Assembly (NCBI GenBank): GCA_008933835.1
Contig: WBUG01000024.1
Coordinates: forward strand, 1-45,824
Direction: 5' to 3'
Source: Bacteroidota bacterium
GTDB lineage: Bacteria; Bacteroidota; Ignavibacteria; UBA10030; UBA8401
DNA length: 45,824 nt
In this document: one piece after another, positions 1-37,441 of the stretch
How the letters are laid out: the number at the start of each line of letters is the position of its first letter
Numbering within the stretch: the stretch's first letter is position 1
Notes under the pieces: model-generated
Told to the model about the DNA's origin: nothing
What the model saw: only the letters and a program-made list of their open reading frames with translations
Database searches by the model: none
Position numbers and translations under genes: made by a program

Positions 1-73
1 GTTGTGCATAAAGAGCTGCTATCGTGTCACGCTCTTCCTGCGTTAGCTGGTTGTAACTTCGGGATTGTGCCAT
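1..73 (-). mobile_element. IS30-family transposase, N-terminal fragment cut by the window edge
   Basis: The minus strand opens at an ATG at 73-71 and reads MAQSRSYNQLTQEERDTIAA up to the edge, 24 codons in all. The pattern YxQLTxEERxxIxxL is the helix-turn-helix start of IS30-family transposases. The family identity is recognition of this short motif. The catalytic DDE core lies outside the window. The ATG lies only about 60 bp from the start of the next gene, so the end of the element must lie between 74 and about 135. Whether the element is intact cannot be seen. Confidence 0.7.
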
Positions 74-135
74 GCTCTAATTGTAATACTTCTTTTAGAG
101 CGTTGCACTTCCTTGTAGAACTCATAAGGTTAAAT
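74..135. other. Probable IS30 terminus and junction with the secreted beta-helix gene
   Basis: These 62 bp separate the oppositely oriented transposase start and the beta-helix gene start. They should contain one terminal inverted repeat of the element, probably around the stretch GTTGCACTTCC at 104-114. The repeat cannot be delimited because the other end is not in the window. A weak ribosome-binding sequence, AAGGT, lies at 126-130, six bases before the ATG at 136. IS30 ends can carry outward promoter elements, so the insertion could drive the downstream gene; this is inference. Confidence 0.35.
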
Positions 136-3100
136 ATGAAGACTAAATTATTATTATACTTACTTATTATTTTAGGCGAAATTGCTCACACGCAAATTGG
201 AAGCATGATCCCAAGCAATCACAGAGTCGATTGGCGAAATCCCGGATATGAAGGAAATATTCCAAGACAAGCACAAAACTATGTTAATGTTAAAACACAA
301 TATATAGATGGTGAGGGACTAAATGCTACAGATGCATTTGTGACTGCAATTGCAGATGCAAATACATGGAACTCGAATCATCCTGGTGAACTATCTATGC
401 TATATTTTCCTGAAGGATATTATGCATTGTCTTCCGATATTAATTTGCAGAGTAATATTATTATCAAGGGAGACGGTTCCGATAGGACTTTATTTTCCTT
501 TACTGACAATGGATTAAAAATTACTGGGAGTTCAAATCCTTCGTATGCAAATATTCAAAACTATACACAGGCTACTAAAACATTGGTTATATCTGGTGAC
601 ATAGGTGTTCAAAATGGTCAATTAATTGAAATCACTGTTCCCAACGGATGGTGGCACAAACCCGATGAAGACGGGAATGAATATGTAGGACAAATAGTTA
701 AAGTGCAAAACGCAAATGGCGAAACGCTTGTTTTAGAAGACGATATTTATTTGGTTTGGTTAATGGAAGGATCAGCCAACAAAGCAAAAGTCCGTATATT
801 TACTCCAATTCAACAAGTTGGAATAGAGGATATAAAAATTGTTTCAAGCGGATTAAATAATACCCATATAAGTATTAATAGTGCTGCAAATTGCTGGATA
901 AGTGGAGTTGAGAGTCAAAATCCGGGATTGCATCACATTGGTATTCATAGTAGTTATAGGATCGAAGTTAGAGGCTGTTATTTTCGCGAGGCAAAAAAAG
1001 TATGCGTAAATGGACAAGGATATGGTGTCCATATAGGATATCATTCTACTAACTGCTTAATAGAAGATAATATTTTTAGAAAACTAAGACATTCCATGAT
1101 AGCTTACGCAGGAGCAACAAGAAATGTTTTTGGATTTAACTATTCAGGAGATAGACGAGCGGATGATCCAGATGGAATTACAGGCAGTTGTGTAGAAATG
1201 AATGGTGTGGAAGCAGATTTATTGTTCCACGGTAGATATCCAATTGCGAATTTAACCGAAGGAAATGTTGTTGATTATATAGCAGGAGAAGTAATTCATG
1301 GTATTAATGGGCAATATAATACTGTTTTCAGAAATAGAACTGCTTGCAACGATGTATCCCTGTCAAGAGCGTATGGCGGAATTCGTTTTTATGAATATGA
1401 GAGCGGTGGGTGTCAACTTTTTAATTCTTACGGCAATACACTAACCGATATAGATGATCAAGATTACTGCTGCGGGGTATCTGACGGTTATAATGGTCAA
1501 AATAGTATGGGGGATAACGCCTATTCTGATATTTCATATTATTATGAATCTCAACCTCAATTTCTTGCTGCTTCTGGTTTGTCATGGCCTCCCGTTGGAA
1601 CTAGGGTCGGACCATTATTAAGCCAAACAAATCCTGCGGAAATGCGCTGGTGGGGTGGTAATAGTAAAAAGACAGTGCAAGCATCTTCCCCATACTATTT
1701 ATTGGAGCTGCATCCGAGTCAATGTGTAGAAGATGGTAGTGTTCAATCAGCTATCTATCACGTAAACAATATCCCAACCAATTCGATTTATTTAAGTAAT
1801 GCAATTTTAACAGTGACACCCCCGGATGGCTATGGATTTCATCGATGGTCAGATGGAAATGAAGATAACCCTCGTCAAATCGTTCTCTCTGGAGCAACCA
1901 CCCTGTATGCAGAACTCAAACAAGCGGCAAAGTCAACCGACGTTGATGGATATAAACAGCATGGCAACAGGAAAGTTGTCAAAACAACGAACGGCGTATT
2001 ACACAATGTCTACGAAAGCTTGGGAAAAGTATGGTATGAATATAGCTCGAATAATGGCGTTTCGTGGAGTATCGCCGATAAATACTTCGTCGGAAAGGGT
2101 AATGGTTCATCCATTGCTGCCGTGAACAGCAATGCAGTGATCGTCGCATATTATACATCAAACCTGCAAGATGGTGGAATACATTTCAAACTATTCCAAG
2201 ATGGGCACCGCGTAGATTTACCCATTCCAAGCATACCAACAAACTATGCGAATCGTCGTCTTTCTCTCGCTGCAGTACGTGATAATGCTACTACATATCC
2301 CAAATACCATAGCGTATTAGTGGGTATATGCGGTGATGATCCGGGAAATCAATCAGGAATAATCCTGAAAACATTTTCGTTGAAAGAAGAGGCCGATCAA
2401 AGTATCTCGTTATGGGATGGTCAAGGAGTTGTAATCATCGGCGATCAATATGCTGACAATCTATCTATTGATGGTATTGCAGGATATGACCATAACTCAT
2501 CCGATCCGAAGTATATGCTCGCATGGGAGCGCACGATAGAATCGAACATCTATTTTGTTAACATTTCAATTGTTGCGGATAAGGATAATTCGCAATTGGT
2601 AAACAAGGAAATATATGCACCGTACCAACCAATCAATATATCAAATGGATCTGGATACTATTATAACACGATGCCCAGTATCATTTACTTTCATCCTGGG
2701 CCAAACTCACATCAAGCAAGAATAAGTTGGATAGGTCGGAGATGGATTCCGATAGAGGAATGGCTAGAAAAAACTAACGGTGGAGGTGATGAAGGATACT
2801 GGGAAGAGGTTATGGTGACAAAGCATGTACATCCGACGACGCCGGGTACTTTTTCAGTTTATGGAGATGCAGTTGTTGCTAATGATATCCAAAAAGTAAC
2901 ATTAAGCGGAAGCATATTCACAAGTGACTATATAATAGCCACCTCCTCCTCTCTCGGCGGGAATGCTTATGTATGTAATTATGTCGGGAGTAATGCCACC
3001 AATGTTCTTGGAGTATTTAGCAACCAAGGACCCAATATTCGTCCGATCAATGATTATCCCGTTACAGATCCGAAATCAATGGTGTACACCTCCGCTACAC

Positions 3101-3960
3101 CATATAACCTGTTATTCACCGGGAAATCAATGAACCAGAATAAATCGAACGGAGGATTATTCTCAGGCCGGGAATTGATTGTGACTAAAGACAGTGCTTC
3201 GATCTACTTTTCTGTGAACAACATTAAGGTGCGGTCGAATAATATTGCATTAAAGGAATGCGATGATACGAACACTATTCGGCATCCATATTATGGAGTT
3301 GGTATAATAGAATCAGGCCCAATATTTTTATCAGATGTCAATGATTTGTCACTCAACGTATCGTATGGAATTACGGACTCTATCAGAACCGCAACGGTAT
3401 TAAGGCAGGGAGATACAATCAAGTTCAGTCTGATCATCGCCGATTATGAGACAAAGGCGATACTGGGTGAATTAGGGGAAATTATTTTCGCCAAGAATGA
3501 CTTCTACAAATATTCAAGCGTTGAATACCAATATGATATTGCTAAACAAGGCGGTCGGAATGTGATAATAGTAGTCTCTGAAAAGGATAATATAGGCGGT
3601 CTTCTAACAGGAGCCGTTAGAATACTGAATGACAAAATATTAGAGAAGAGGAATAGCAAGCACAAAAAAGTGATACGAGTTGGCGAAGGAAGAATATCGG
3701 AGTATAGTTTGGAAAGCAACTTCCCCAACCCCTTCAACCCCTCCACCACAATATCGTACGCTCTTCCGCAGGACGGCTTGACCACCCTGAAGGTGTACGA
3801 CGCGCTCGGACGAGAGGTGGCTGAACTGGTGAACGAGTTCAAGCCGACCGGACGGTATACCGCCTCGTTCGATGCTTCACGGTTGTCGAGCGGGGTGTAT
3901 GTCTACCGGTTGGTATCGGATAAATATTCAGCGGTGAAAAAGATGCTTCTGCTCAAATGA
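136..3960 (+). CDS. Secreted right-handed beta-helix protein with T9SS sorting domain
   Basis: This is a 1,274-residue exported protein of unknown substrate. The start at 136 is chosen because MKTKLLLYLLIILGEIAHTQ is a clear signal peptide; the open frame continues upstream to base 4 without one. Residues about 45-450 resemble the pectate-lyase-3 type parallel beta-helix (YFPEGYY, NIIIKGDGSDRT, then short repeated strands such as NCLIEDNIFRKL). Around 570-610 there is an InlB-B-like repeat (TPPDGYGFHRWSDGN). From 620 on, a sialidase/BNR-like region includes an Asp-box-like SSNNGVSW. Residues about 1,193-1,274 are a T9SS C-terminal sorting domain (NFPNPFNPSTTISY, LGREVAELV, SGVYVYRL). The body is AT-rich and the sorting domain GC-rich: hand counts give 21/60 G+C at 361-420, 25/60 at 2401-2460 and 36/60 at 3781-3840. 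This suggests a foreign passenger joined to a host-type tail. Polysaccharide binding or cleavage is likely but not shown. Confidence 0.8.
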   Translation: MKTKLLLYLLIILGEIAHTQIGSMIPSNHRVDWRNPGYEGNIPRQAQNYVNVKTQYIDGEGLNATDAFVTAIADANTWNSNHPGELSMLYFPEGYYALSSDINLQSNIIIKGDGSDRTLFSFTDNGLKITGSSNPSYANIQNYTQATKTLVISGDIGVQNGQLIEITVPNGWWHKPDEDGNEYVGQIVKVQNANGETLVLEDDIYLVWLMEGSANKAKVRIFTPIQQVGIEDIKIVSSGLNNTHISINSAANCWISGVESQNPGLHHIGIHSSYRIEVRGCYFREAKKVCVNGQGYGVHIGYHSTNCLIEDNIFRKLRHSMIAYAGATRNVFGFNYSGDRRADDPDGITGSCVEMNGVEADLLFHGRYPIANLTEGNVVDYIAGEVIHGINGQYNTVFRNRTACNDVSLSRAYGGIRFYEYESGGCQLFNSYGNTLTDIDDQDYCCGVSDGYNGQNSMGDNAYSDISYYYESQPQFLAASGLSWPPVGTRVGPLLSQTNPAEMRWWGGNSKKTVQASSPYYLLELHPSQCVEDGSVQSAIYHVNNIPTNSIYLSNAILTVTPPDGYGFHRWSDGNEDNPRQIVLSGATTLYAELKQAAKSTDVDGYKQHGNRKVVKTTNGVLHNVYESLGKVWYEYSSNNGVSWSIADKYFVGKGNGSSIAAVNSNAVIVAYYTSNLQDGGIHFKLFQDGHRVDLPIPSIPTNYANRRLSLAAVRDNATTYPKYHSVLVGICGDDPGNQSGIILKTFSLKEEADQSISLWDGQGVVIIGDQYADNLSIDGIAGYDHNSSDPKYMLAWERTIESNIYFVNISIVADKDNSQLVNKEIYAPYQPINISNGSGYYYNTMPSIIYFHPGPNSHQARISWIGRRWIPIEEWLEKTNGGGDEGYWEEVMVTKHVHPTTPGTFSVYGDAVVANDIQKVTLSGSIFTSDYIIATSSSLGGNAYVCNYVGSNATNVLGVFSNQGPNIRPINDYPVTDPKSMVYTSATPYNLLFTGKSMNQNKSNGGLFSGRELIVTKDSASIYFSVNNIKVRSNNIALKECDDTNTIRHPYYGVGIIESGPIFLSDVNDLSLNVSYGITDSIRTATVLRQGDTIKFSLIIADYETKAILGELGEIIFAKNDFYKYSSVEYQYDIAKQGGRNVIIVVSEKDNIGGLLTGAVRILNDKILEKRNSKHKKVIRVGEGRISEYSLESNFPNPFNPSTTISYALPQDGLTTLKVYDALGREVAELVNEFKPTGRYTASFDASRLSSGVYVYRLVSDKYSAVKKMLLLK

Positions 3961-30354: not shown

Positions 30355-30380
30355 TGAAAAATCATAAACAGCAAGTTACA

Positions 30381-30451
30381 TGATGCATGGTACAGGATGC
30401 AGGAAAGAAGACAGAACGATGCAAGATGCATGATACAGGATGCAGGATACA
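30381..30451 (+). repeat. Heptamer array (GGATGCA type)
   Basis: Ten units: TGATGCA, TGGTACA, GGATGCA, GGAAAGA, AGACAGA, ACGATGCA (one extra base), AGATGCA, TGATACA, GGATGCA, GGATACA. Its consensus GGATGCA differs from the array before it although the period is the same. Confidence 0.85.
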
Positions 30452-30458
30452 GAATCGT

Positions 30459-30493
30459 GTGTTTTGTGATTTTTGATTTGTGATTTGTGAATT
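30459..30493 (+). repeat. TTTGTGA-type heptamer array before the M19 dipeptidase gene
   Basis: Five units: GTGTTTT, GTGATTT, TTGATTT, GTGATTT, GTGAATT. They end a few bases before the strong ribosome-binding site GGAGG (30499-30503). Position and orientation match the other start-proximal arrays. Confidence 0.8.
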
Positions 30494-30507: not shown

Positions 30508-32139
30508 ATGTCCATGTTCCGTTTCCCGTTGATGTTCGCAGCGCTGGCCCTTCTGTCGTCGCCGGCGTATTCCCAGTCCTTCACGCTCGGCGGAACGGTG
30601 AAGGATTCGGTGACGGCGCTCGGCATCGATTCGGTGAAGATCGAGATGTTCGATCCGGTGCAGCCCGCGTCGGTCTGGACCGCGTACACGAACGCGTCGG
30701 GACAATGGTCGTACACCGTCACATCGGTCCATGAGGACGAAGCGGTCCCGCAGGGCTTCGCGCTCCATCAGAACTATCCGAACCCGTTCAATCCCTCCAC
30801 GATGCTCGCCTTCTCGCTCTCGGCGGGGGGGGCAGTGACCGTCTCCGTCCACACCGTGCTCGGACAGCGCATCGCAGAGCGGACGTTCGACCTCGCCCCC
30901 GGCGCATATCGGGTGCCGTGGAACGGCGCCGGCGCGGCGGGAACGTACTTCTATACCGTCCGGTACGGCGGCCGCTCGTACACGCGGAAGATGGTGCAGC
31001 TGGACGGCGCGCACGCCGCCGGAGGGTTCGGTGAACCGGTGCAGAGCGGCTCGTTCCTCTCCGCGCCGCTCGGTAAGCGGGGCATCACCGACGTCACGCT
31101 CCGCTTCTCGCGGCTCGGTTATGAACCGGATTCCCTCACCCTTCCCGCCGCATCGAACCAGGCGCTGGCGCAGACGCTCACCACCGTGCACCACCGTGCG
31201 CTCGTCTTCGACCTGCACAACGACATCGCGGAACTGATGGTGGACGGCTACCAGATGGGGACCCTCCACACCAGCAACCAGAGCGACATCCCCCGCTTCC
31301 GCACCGGCGGAGTGGACGCGCAGATGTTCGTGCTGTGGCCCGATCCGAACTCCTTCCCCTCCGGATTCGCCCGCACCAAACAGATGTACGATACCGTCAT
31401 GGCGCAGGTGGCCCGCAACGCCTCCGCCATCGCCGTGGCGAAGAACACCGCCGAACTCCACTCCGTGCTCGCCTCCGGCCGCATCGCCGCTGTGCTCTGC
31501 GTGGAAGGAGGGACCGCCATCGACGAGAGCCTGGAGAAGCTCAAGACGCTCTATTCCTACGGCGCGCGGTACATGACCATCACCTGGAACAACAGCTTCT
31601 CTTGGGCCGTCGCCGCGGCGGACGCACAGAGCGCCACGAAGGGACTGAGCGACTTCGGAAAGGACGTCATCCGCACCATGGACACGCTCGGCATGCTCAT
31701 CGACGTGTCCCACACCGGCATCAAGACCATCGACGACATCCTCACGGTGACGAAGAATCCCATCATCGCCAGCCACTCCGGCGCCCGCACGCTCCGGAAC
31801 CATACACGCAATCTCACGGACGCGCAGCTCCAGGCCATCGCCGCATCGGGCGGCGTGGTGGGGGTGGTGTTCCACCGGACGTTCATCACGAGCACCTCCA
31901 CCGCCACCATCGACACGGTGATGAAGCATATCGACTACATCAAGAACCTCGTCGGCGTGGACCATGTCGCGGTCGGGTCGGACTACGACGGCGGCATCAC
32001 TCCCCCCGTCGGTCTGGAGAACGTCTCGAAACTCCCCGCCCTCACCATGGCGATGTTCCGGAGAGGATACACGAAGGAGGAGGTGAAGAAGATCCTCGGG
32101 GGGAATTACCTTCGCGTGTTCACACAGGTGTGCAAGTGA
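30508..32139 (+). CDS. Secreted M19 (renal-type) dipeptidase with an internal T9SS-like sorting module
   Basis: This 543-residue protein has a signal peptide (1-23), then half of a carboxypeptidase regulatory-like domain (about 26-72). A T9SS sorting-domain-like module follows (about 84-165: LHQNYPNPFNPSTM, VLGQRIAE, GTYFYTVRYGG, YTRKMVQL). The remainder of the regulatory domain comes next (about 193-225, DVTLRFSRLGYEPDSL), then the M19 peptidase. Zinc ligands are complete: H237 and D239 (DLHND), E333 (CVEGG), H402 (DVSHTG), H423 (ASHSG), and D492 (GSDYDG). It should hydrolyse dipeptides, including D-residue dipeptides, outside the cytoplasm. The sorting module is normally the C-terminus; here it lies inside and the protein ends without one. 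The start at 30508 has GGAGG five bases upstream. Confidence 0.88.
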   Translation: MSMFRFPLMFAALALLSSPAYSQSFTLGGTVKDSVTALGIDSVKIEMFDPVQPASVWTAYTNASGQWSYTVTSVHEDEAVPQGFALHQNYPNPFNPSTMLAFSLSAGGAVTVSVHTVLGQRIAERTFDLAPGAYRVPWNGAGAAGTYFYTVRYGGRSYTRKMVQLDGAHAAGGFGEPVQSGSFLSAPLGKRGITDVTLRFSRLGYEPDSLTLPAASNQALAQTLTTVHHRALVFDLHNDIAELMVDGYQMGTLHTSNQSDIPRFRTGGVDAQMFVLWPDPNSFPSGFARTKQMYDTVMAQVARNASAIAVAKNTAELHSVLASGRIAAVLCVEGGTAIDESLEKLKTLYSYGARYMTITWNNSFSWAVAAADAQSATKGLSDFGKDVIRTMDTLGMLIDVSHTGIKTIDDILTVTKNPIIASHSGARTLRNHTRNLTDAQLQAIAASGGVVGVVFHRTFITSTSTATIDTVMKHIDYIKNLVGVDHVAVGSDYDGGITPPVGLENVSKLPALTMAMFRRGYTKEEVKKILGGNYLRVFTQVCK

Positions 32140-35971: not shown

Positions 35972-37441
35972 ATGCGACCATTCCGCCTCCTGTCCCTCTT
36001 CGCTTTTCTTGTGTTCCATTCACCGGACGCACCGGCACAGCCGGTACCGGCGGACAGTCTGTATCTGGGGCAAACGCCTCCCGGAACAGCTCCGGCCGTC
36101 TTCAGACTTCCGTTCACAGGCGGACTCCGCCCTGTGGAGCGCATCGCCATTTCGTCCGACGGTACGGAGATCTACTTCGGCGAGTTGAACACCTATCCTC
36201 CCAACATTCAAAAGGTGCGCTTCCTCCGGTACGCGGAGGGACGCTGGCAAGGACCGTCGCTGCTCTTCGACGGATTCGCCGCGCCTCGTTTGTCGGCGGA
36301 CGACAGCGTGATGTACGTGCAGTCCAACATCAACGATTTCTCGACGACGTACATCTCGCACCGCACCGCGCAGGGATGGAGCGCCCCGGTCCGGCTCTTC
36401 GACACCGATCAGCAGACGCATTATTTCCAGACCACCGGAGCCGGGAACGGCTACCTTTCGTCCAATCCTCCTTCTTCCCCCGCCAAGCGCGACATCTGCC
36501 GGCTCATCGTCAGCGGAACGGACTCGCTGATCAGTACGCTGGGAGCGCCCATCAACACCCCGGCGGACGAGAACGATCTCTTCGTCGCCGGGGACGAATC
36601 GTACCTCCTCTTCAGCCGCAATCTTTCACCGGGCGGGGATATCTATCTCAGTTTTCGGACCACCGACGGACGATGGACCAATCCGAAGCGGCTCCCTTCC
36701 CCCATCAACAAGAGCGGCGCCTCCTGGGAGTACGGACAGTTCGTCACGAAGGACGGCCAATACCTGTTCTACACCAGCGGAGGGACGACGATGAGCTCCT
36801 ACAACACGTACTGGGTGCGCATCGACGGCATCATCGACAGTCTGCGGCACACGAACTTCGTTCCGTACGTCCGGACGGCCGTTCCGGCGCTCACCACCGG
36901 CGGCGGTTCCTTCACCTACACGGTACCGGAGAGCACGTTCACGGACGACGACGGGAACGGAACGCTCGCGTATTCCGCCTCGCTGAACGGCGGCGAACCG
37001 CTCCCAGCCTGGTTGTCGTTCGATCCGGCGTTTCGGCGCTTCTCCGGAACCCCGCCGCAGAGCGTCACGCTCAACCTTCAACTCACCGCGACCGACCCCG
37101 CCGGCGCCAAAGCCGCCTGCACGTTCACGCTCACGGCCGTTGTGACGGGAGCGAACGAACGACGGCGTCCGGCGCCGGAACGGATGCAACTCCATCAGAA
37201 CCATCCGAATCCGTTCAATCCGGTGACGACCATCGGGTTCTCGATTCCGGAGAGGTCCGACGTCACCCTGTCGGTGCACGACGTACTGGGACGGGAGCTC
37301 GCCGCATTGCTTCGAGAGGAGCGTCCGGCCGGCACGCACACGGTACAATGGAGCGGCGAAGGGAACTCCGGCGGCATCTATTTCGCACGGCTCCGCTCCG
37401 GAGCGCACACGCAGGTGATCCGTATGGCATTGGTGAAATGA
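35972..37441 (+). CDS. T9SS-exported protein with PD40-like propeller and cadherin-like domain
   Basis: This 489-residue protein has a signal peptide (MRPFRLLSLFAFLVFHSPDAPA). Residues about 40-300 hold repeats such as ERIAISSDGTEIYFGEL, APRLSADDSVMYVQSN, and GQFVTKDGQYLFYTSGG, typical of PD40/TolB-type propeller blades. Residues about 310-390 (VPALTTGGGSFTYTVPESTFTDDDGNGTLAYSASLNGG) form a dystroglycan-type cadherin-like domain. The last 80 residues (QLHQNHPNPFNPVTTIGF to IRMALVK) form a standard C-terminal T9SS sorting domain. GGAG lies 7 bp before the ATG. It is probably surface-attached or secreted; its ligand is unknown. Confidence 0.85.
   Translation: MRPFRLLSLFAFLVFHSPDAPAQPVPADSLYLGQTPPGTAPAVFRLPFTGGLRPVERIAISSDGTEIYFGELNTYPPNIQKVRFLRYAEGRWQGPSLLFDGFAAPRLSADDSVMYVQSNINDFSTTYISHRTAQGWSAPVRLFDTDQQTHYFQTTGAGNGYLSSNPPSSPAKRDICRLIVSGTDSLISTLGAPINTPADENDLFVAGDESYLLFSRNLSPGGDIYLSFRTTDGRWTNPKRLPSPINKSGASWEYGQFVTKDGQYLFYTSGGTTMSSYNTYWVRIDGIIDSLRHTNFVPYVRTAVPALTTGGGSFTYTVPESTFTDDDGNGTLAYSASLNGGEPLPAWLSFDPAFRRFSGTPPQSVTLNLQLTATDPAGAKAACTFTLTAVVTGANERRRPAPERMQLHQNHPNPFNPVTTIGFSIPERSDVTLSVHDVLGRELAALLREERPAGTHTVQWSGEGNSGGIYFARLRSGAHTQVIRMALVK

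What the first reader, a model, noticed from the sequence alone, without database searches (positions are those of the whole stretch)
30730..31080. T9SS sorting module inserted inside another domain of a secreted dipeptidase
Residues about 75-191 of the M19 protein hold a full sorting-type module (NYPNPFNPS to YTRKMVQL). Both halves of a carboxypeptidase regulatory-like domain flank it (TNASGQWSYTV before, DVTLRFSRLGYEPDSL after). In known T9SS cargo this module is C-terminal and is removed or anchored there. An internal copy cannot work in the usual way unless the protein is processed or the module serves as a structural insert. The encoded protein ends without a sorting tail.
Basis: partly seen in the sequence, partly recalled or inferred. 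Interest (0 to 1): 0.75.

Follow-up and report, generated by a model that had tools for sequence, protein, structure and literature searches.

The report
Nested secretion tag before secreted enzymes
A protein tag known in this group of bacteria almost only as the very end of exported proteins sits here folded inside another domain near the front of a secreted dipeptidase, and the same nested arrangement recurs in front of other unrelated enzymes, which makes it directly testable whether the tag must be at the end to work.

Summary
The 543-aa M19 dipeptidase (30508-32139) carries a type IX secretion (T9SS) type A sorting module at aa 90-163, 380 aa before the stop, and has no C-terminal module. 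Of 147 such modules in this genome, 145 end within 21 aa of a stop, one is FlgD-like, and only this one is internal. It is not an assembly error: about 60 M19 orthologues from Ignavibacteria, KSB1, Neomarinimicrobiota and Delongbacteria share the same order. Structure prediction places the two flanks in one transthyretin/CnaB-like domain, with the module folding like the PorU CTD as an insert in one of its loops. The arrangement is not confined to M19. The same N-terminal layout (signal peptide, half domain, sorting module, half domain) precedes GH30 xylanases, FISUMP, beta-propeller-like and unknown proteins, and none has a C-terminal module. Within GH30 the module occurs nested (14), C-terminal (2) or absent (5). 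Nested modules keep the motif-E lysine needed for T9SS export but lose the terminal Lys/Arg. I favour a non-terminal T9SS signal, probably uncleaved (0.5), over a retired structural domain (0.37). No secretion experiment exists. Novelty: new variant of a known kind.

The parts
30508..32139 (+). M19 dipeptidase gene, 543 aa plus stop
   Evidence: ORF, translation, Pfam PF01244 331 bits, renal dipeptidase fold Z 43
30508..30576 (+). predicted Sec signal peptide, aa 1-23 (no lipobox Cys)
   Evidence: read from the sequence (MSMFRFPLMFAALALLSSPAYSQ); all orthologues start with a similar hydrophobic stretch; no signal-peptide program was run
30577..30723 (+). first half of the carboxypeptidase-regulatory-like (transthyretin/CnaB-fold) host domain, aa 24-72
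   Evidence: PF13620 in 51 of 60 orthologues; predicted strands; structural matches over model 1..204
30724..30774 (+). entry linker, aa 73-89, low confidence in the model
   Evidence: pLDDT < 50 at aa 74-84
30775..30996 (+). nested T9SS type A sorting-type module, aa 90-163
   Evidence: TIGR04183 over cut-off; PorU CTD match Z 9.1
30988..30990 (+). motif-E lysine, Lys161
   Evidence: K in 58 of 60 M19 nested modules, R in the other 2; invariant in the 21-sequence alignment
30997..31083 (+). Gly-rich exit after the module (QLDG..AGGFG, aa 164-192), replacing the terminal Lys/Arg and stop of ordinary modules
   Evidence: D in 56 of 60 nested M19 modules versus K/R in 145 of 151 C-terminal modules at that column
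31090..31179 (+). second half of the host domain, aa 195-224
   Evidence: predicted strands; structural matches; joined halves match PF13620 1-82/82 in an orthologue
31186..32127 (+). M19 metallopeptidase domain, aa 227-540, with His237, Asp239, Glu333, His402 and His423 conserved
   Evidence: the assignment as zinc ligands follows the known M19 pattern (own knowledge)

Best explanation
Shown: this is a conserved N-terminal cassette made of a signal peptide and then a transthyretin/CnaB-like (carboxypeptidase-regulatory-like) domain whose loop between its fourth and fifth strands carries a complete T9SS type A-like beta-sandwich (fold by prediction). The cassette precedes several unrelated passengers (M19, GH30, FISUMP, propeller-like), none of which has a C-terminal sorting module. 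Inferred: after Sec export and folding in the periplasm, the nested module protrudes from the host domain, is recognised by SprA/PorV like an ordinary CTD through its folded surface and motif-E lysine, and leads the protein out module-first, with the passenger trailing from its C-terminal side. Because a PorU-type cut on the N-terminal side of the module would only nick the host domain and could not free the passenger, the enzyme would stay joined to its signal, plausibly giving an uncleaved, surface-held enzyme.
For: Only internal module among 147 in this genome, so position is not loosely controlled. Layout conserved in about 60 M19 orthologues across Ignavibacteria, KSB1, Neomarinimicrobiota and Delongbacteria. 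The module keeps the CTD fold and the motif-E lysine: 79 K and 2 R of 81 in the M19, GH30, propeller-like and unknown sets, against 118 K and 25 R of 151 C-terminal modules. That lysine is the one near-invariant, functionally important surface residue of type A CTDs (PMC10994853, PMC10202324). 98 proteins with an internal module, 0 with a second C-terminal one. GH30 in the same class places the module either nested (14) or C-terminal (2), including both kinds about 8 kb apart on one contig (L269, L286); GH30 xylanases are expected to meet polymeric substrate outside the cell (own knowledge). All 43 carrier genomes examined have SprA. CTDs tolerate C-terminal extension by His tags (PMC11285876).
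Against: No secretion data. The terminal Lys/Arg of ordinary modules is replaced by Asp/Gly or others, and the last residues of CTDs matter in P. gingivalis, although loss of only the last residue of RgpB was tolerated (PMC11285876). Known tolerated extensions are His tags of about eight residues, not 300-900 residues. Five of 21 complete GH30 proteins have no module at all, so these enzymes may not need one. SprA is near universal in the class (194/197 over cut-off) and in the phylum of the Neomarinimicrobiota carrier (145/149), so co-occurrence proves nothing. The 0-of-98 exclusivity rests on only about 6-8 independent passenger families.
Confidence: 0.5

Rival explanations
1. Retired sorting module: an ancient T9SS CTD was inserted into the host domain and kept as a purely structural Ig-like insert (spacer, stabiliser or contact surface) in periplasmic or otherwise exported enzymes; it no longer meets the T9SS.
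For: The C-terminal signature K/R-stop is lost and replaced by a conserved Gly-rich exit (QLDGGxGGG). The M19 nested modules form one clade apart from the 145 C-terminal modules (support 0.95; 0.77 without the end columns). Ig-like folds are common spacers, and some GH30 relatives do without any module.
Against: Motif-E lysine is kept at least as strictly as in C-terminal modules. The nested layout recurs with different passengers in at least three module clades, and none has a replacement C-terminal signal.
Confidence: 0.37
2. Surface-binding use: the protein crosses the outer membrane by another route and the module serves to bind a carrier or partner such as PorV or a shuttle-like protein, holding the enzyme at the surface.
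For: Type A CTDs bind PorV loops directly (PMC10994853), and a nested module could remain bound because it cannot be cut away from the passenger.
Against: No other outer-membrane export route is indicated by the sequences; the idea needs two systems where one suffices.
Confidence: 0.1
3. Assembly chimera or mis-called gene.
For: The contig belongs to a 163-contig assembly with 3.4% contamination.
Against: Same order in about 60 independent assemblies, including single-contig genomes (G119, G165).
Confidence: 0.01

Closest known systems
T9SS type A C-terminal domain (TIGR04183; CTDs of RgpB, PorU, PorZ, RemZ)
   Same: Beta-sandwich fold (PorU CTD Z 9.1), NYPNPFNPST start, conserved G-x-Y/F and motif-E Lys, Sec signal peptide on the protein, SprA-positive genome
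   Different: Not C-terminal: 380 aa follow; nested in a host domain; terminal Lys/Arg replaced by D/G and a Gly-rich exit
Uncleaved CTDs of PorU, PorZ and PorA
   Same: Precedent for a CTD that stays on the exported protein (PMC11285876)
   Different: Still at the C-terminus; [quoted passage not shown]
Carboxypeptidase regulatory-like domain (PF13620/PF13715), transthyretin/CnaB fold
   Same: Fold and PF13620 matches of the joined halves
   Different: Split by a ~115-residue insert carrying the sorting-type module
M19 membrane/renal dipeptidases (e.g. Sco3058, 3id7)
   Same: Catalytic domain, Z 43, conserved metal-site residues
   Different: N-terminal cassette added
FlgD Ig-like domain (PF13860)
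   Same: Related beta-sandwich that is used without T9SS; 24 of 60 nested regions match it
   Different: Own FlgD-like protein lacks the NYPNPF start and motif-E lysine; the nested module scores as TIGR04183

Membership tests
T9SS type A sorting domain (TIGR04183) | profile score over the curated cut-off | tested here: met
   36.9 bits, cut-off 23
T9SS type A sorting domain (TIGR04183) | CTD beta-sandwich fold | tested here: met
   predicted strands 62-142 of the model; PorU CTD Z 9.1, rmsd 2.2, 86 residues
T9SS type A sorting domain (TIGR04183) | motif-E lysine | tested here: met
   Lys161; 58 K and 2 R of 60 orthologues
T9SS type A sorting domain (TIGR04183) | C-terminal position ending in Lys/Arg near the stop | tested here: not met
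   380 aa follow; D at the terminal K/R column. It is therefore a sorting-type module, not filed as an ordinary T9SS CTD
T9SS cargo | SprA-dependent export across the outer membrane | not testable with these tools
   SprA present, but no export assay
Carboxypeptidase regulatory-like domain (PF13620) | profile match across both halves once joined | tested here: inconclusive
   orthologues: 1-82/82 at 29.7 bits versus 18.4 for half 1 alone; L170 38.7 bits over cut-off 32.3; but the window protein itself only weakly (PF13715, 18 bits, below cut-off) and one of ten orthologues without any match
Carboxypeptidase regulatory-like / transthyretin fold | flanks form one domain | tested here: met
   79-86 aligned residues spanning model 1..204 to single domains such as CnaB2 8bdw (95 aa, Z 10.9) and transthyretin (Z ~9)
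Peptidase family M19 | profile and fold | tested here: met
   PF01244 331 bits; 3id7/3itc Z 43.3
Peptidase family M19 | metal-site residues conserved | tested here: met
   H237, D239, E333, H402, H423 invariant or nearly so in 21 orthologues; their role as ligands is from family knowledge

The most novel reading that the evidence does not exclude
A previously undescribed, transferable N-terminal T9SS signal cassette: a sorting module nested in a transthyretin-like domain directs diverse enzymes through SprA/PorV without a C-terminal signal, so the 'C-terminal' domain need not be C-terminal and the passenger follows from the other side.
Probability: 0.45. Interest if true: 0.85.

Novelty: new variant of a known kind. 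Interest (0 to 1): 0.62.

Why it matters
T9SS cargo is predicted and annotated on the assumption that the signal is the last domain. A recurrent nested N-terminal version would mean a class of exported enzymes is overlooked or mis-described, would bear on how the translocon threads a passenger and how PorU-type processing decides release or anchoring, and would give a ready test of whether CTD position matters. If the module is instead retired, the cassette shows how a secretion signal is turned into an internal domain.

Tried and rejected
Misassembly: rejected by conservation in about 60 assemblies. Chance profile match: rejected by score, fold and conservation. T9SS co-occurrence as evidence: tried and dropped because SprA is near universal in the groups compared. 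Foldseek alone gave only weak mixed Ig-like matches, with no hit at E <= 0.001; VIA-align on the same model was informative. The full-length model search was filled by M19 hits and said nothing about the N-terminus. Single origin of all nested modules: the tree does not decide (support 0.116); M19+unknown, GH30+part of the propeller-like set, and FISUMP-type sets are separate clades. HH comparison joins the M19 and FISUMP cassettes over the whole length (202 columns) but the M19 and GH30 cassettes only through half 1 and module (149 columns). The motif-E column could not be counted automatically in the FISUMP set (misaligned); by eye all 13 have K before L or I. Literature searches found no description of an internal or N-terminal T9SS module; the library is open-access only.

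Full report
Observation. The gene at 30508-32139 (+) encodes 543 aa. M19 peptidase covers aa 227-540 (331 bits) and models as a renal-dipeptidase fold (Z 43). TIGR04183, the T9SS type A sorting domain, matches aa 90-163 at 36.9 bits against a cut-off of 23; Pfam's version is below its cut-off (15.9 of 27). The protein starts with a signal-peptide-like stretch and ends in TQVCK without a sorting module. I searched the whole genome (G000, 3.57 Mb, 163 contigs) with TIGR04183 and found 147 places, fetched them and measured the distance to the stop. 145 are within 21 aa of it, one FlgD-like module is 47 aa away, and only the M19 module is internal, with 380 aa to go.

Conservation. A class-wide search of 197 genomes found the close M19 orthologue in some 22 genomes of eight families. 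Their proteins share signal peptide, half domain, NYPNPFNPS module, KMIQLDGGxGGG linker, half domain and M19. In named genomes the same layout is seen in Ignavibacteria, KSB1, Neomarinimicrobiota and Delongbacteria records. All complete relatives at about 45% identity or more have the module; the exceptions are cut or broken ORFs. More distant M19 proteins of Acidobacteria, Gemmatimonadota and others (<=37%) lack it. Within the module PNPF and two glycines are invariant over 60 sequences.

Structure. A model of aa 23-226 built on 60 sequences has mean pLDDT 86, with low values only in the linkers, and pTM 0.54, so the relative orientation of the two domains is uncertain. VIA-align matches single transthyretin- or CnaB-like domains over the range 1..204 with only 79-86 residues aligned in most (Z 9-11.4), meaning both flanks together make one domain, while the PorU CTD (6za2 1055-1158) matches 59..145 with Z 9.1. 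By sequence, PF13620 is seen in 51 of 60 members, and joining the halves raises and lengthens the match in several (29.7 versus 18.4 bits, 1-82/82). For the window protein itself the domain match is weak.

Beyond M19. A search with the cassette profile and then with half 1 plus module start brought up other proteins. After fetching they show the same front end before GH30 XynC-like xylanases (14), FISUMP proteins and their relatives in one family (13), propeller-like or similar proteins (5, passenger type judged by eye) and two unknowns. Among 34 such proteins and 64 M19 proteins with an internal module none has a C-terminal one. In GH30 of this class 14 are nested, 2 have the ordinary C-terminal module and 5 have none. 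G058 has a nested and a C-terminal version about 8 kb apart (L286, L269). Two small proteins, in L255 (177 aa) and L263 (227 aa), consist of signal peptide, half 1 and module and end KKLLFLK or KKMLLLK, the ordinary C-terminal form. HH comparison aligns the M19 and FISUMP cassettes over 202 columns including half 2, and the M19 and GH30 cassettes over 149 columns. The M19 nested modules are one clade against the own C-terminal modules (support 0.95), joined by the two unknowns when all are analysed (0.989). Whether all nested cassettes have one origin is open.

Function. Known type A CTDs are bound as folded domains by SprA and PorV; the one near-invariant surface residue is a lysine near the C-terminus (PMC10994853), part of motif E, whose lysines are needed for efficient secretion (PMC10202324). 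Adding His tags after the CTD of PorU, PorZ or PPAD does not block export, while replacing the last residues (PorU, PorZ) does (PMC11285876). Nested modules keep this lysine (79 K, 2 R of 81; C-terminal modules 118 K, 25 R of 151) but not the terminal Lys/Arg. That the motif-E lysine counted here is the same one as in those papers is by motif position, not by a structure alignment of mine. With a signal peptide, no other export signal, and the GH30 alternation, a working non-terminal T9SS signal is my preferred reading at 0.5. All 43 carriers examined have SprA, but SprA is nearly universal in the groups compared, so its presence is not evidence. The main rival is a retired structural domain (0.37). 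The order of events in export and the idea that the passenger stays attached are inference.

Verdict. Architecture: well supported by sequence and prediction. Mechanism: open but directly testable. Filed as a sorting-type module in a new position, not as an ordinary T9SS CTD, because C-terminal position was tested and not met.

Noticed in passing
L205, L237, L239-L245, L247-L249, L251: GH30 XynC-like xylanases of several families of the class carry the same nested sorting module at the N-terminus and none at the C-terminus.
   Followed up: yes
L269 and L286 (G058 contig C56): Two GH30 paralogues about 8 kb apart, one with the module at the C-terminus (519 aa) and one with it nested at the N-terminus (642 aa).
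   Followed up: partly
L201-L204, L252-L258, L261, L262 (family f8, genus g29): Expansion of nested-cassette proteins in one genus, many with FISUMP domains; several per genome.
   Followed up: partly
L255 (ORF matched at 1577, 177 aa) and L263 (227 aa): Short proteins of signal peptide, first half domain and module that stop right after the module with terminal Lys: possible ancestor or by-product of the cassette. The L255 one lies just upstream of a full-cassette gene.
   Followed up: no
L260 and L264 (G195): Two 750-aa proteins of unknown function whose nested module belongs to the M19 clade, so the M19 type of cassette has been shuffled to another passenger.
   Followed up: partly
window 30368-30461: Degenerate direct repeats (ACAGGATGCAGGA-like, three overlapping copies) in the intergenic stretch just upstream of the M19 gene.
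   Followed up: partly
G000:C73:31663-31827 (L071): A FlgD-like Ig domain scores over the T9SS TIGR04183 cut-off (25.8 bits) though it lacks the NYPNPF start, so weak TIGR04183 hits can be FlgD.
   Followed up: partly
window 3721-3948 and 37205-37423: Two further T9SS type A modules in the window, both at the C-terminus of their ORFs.
   Followed up: yes
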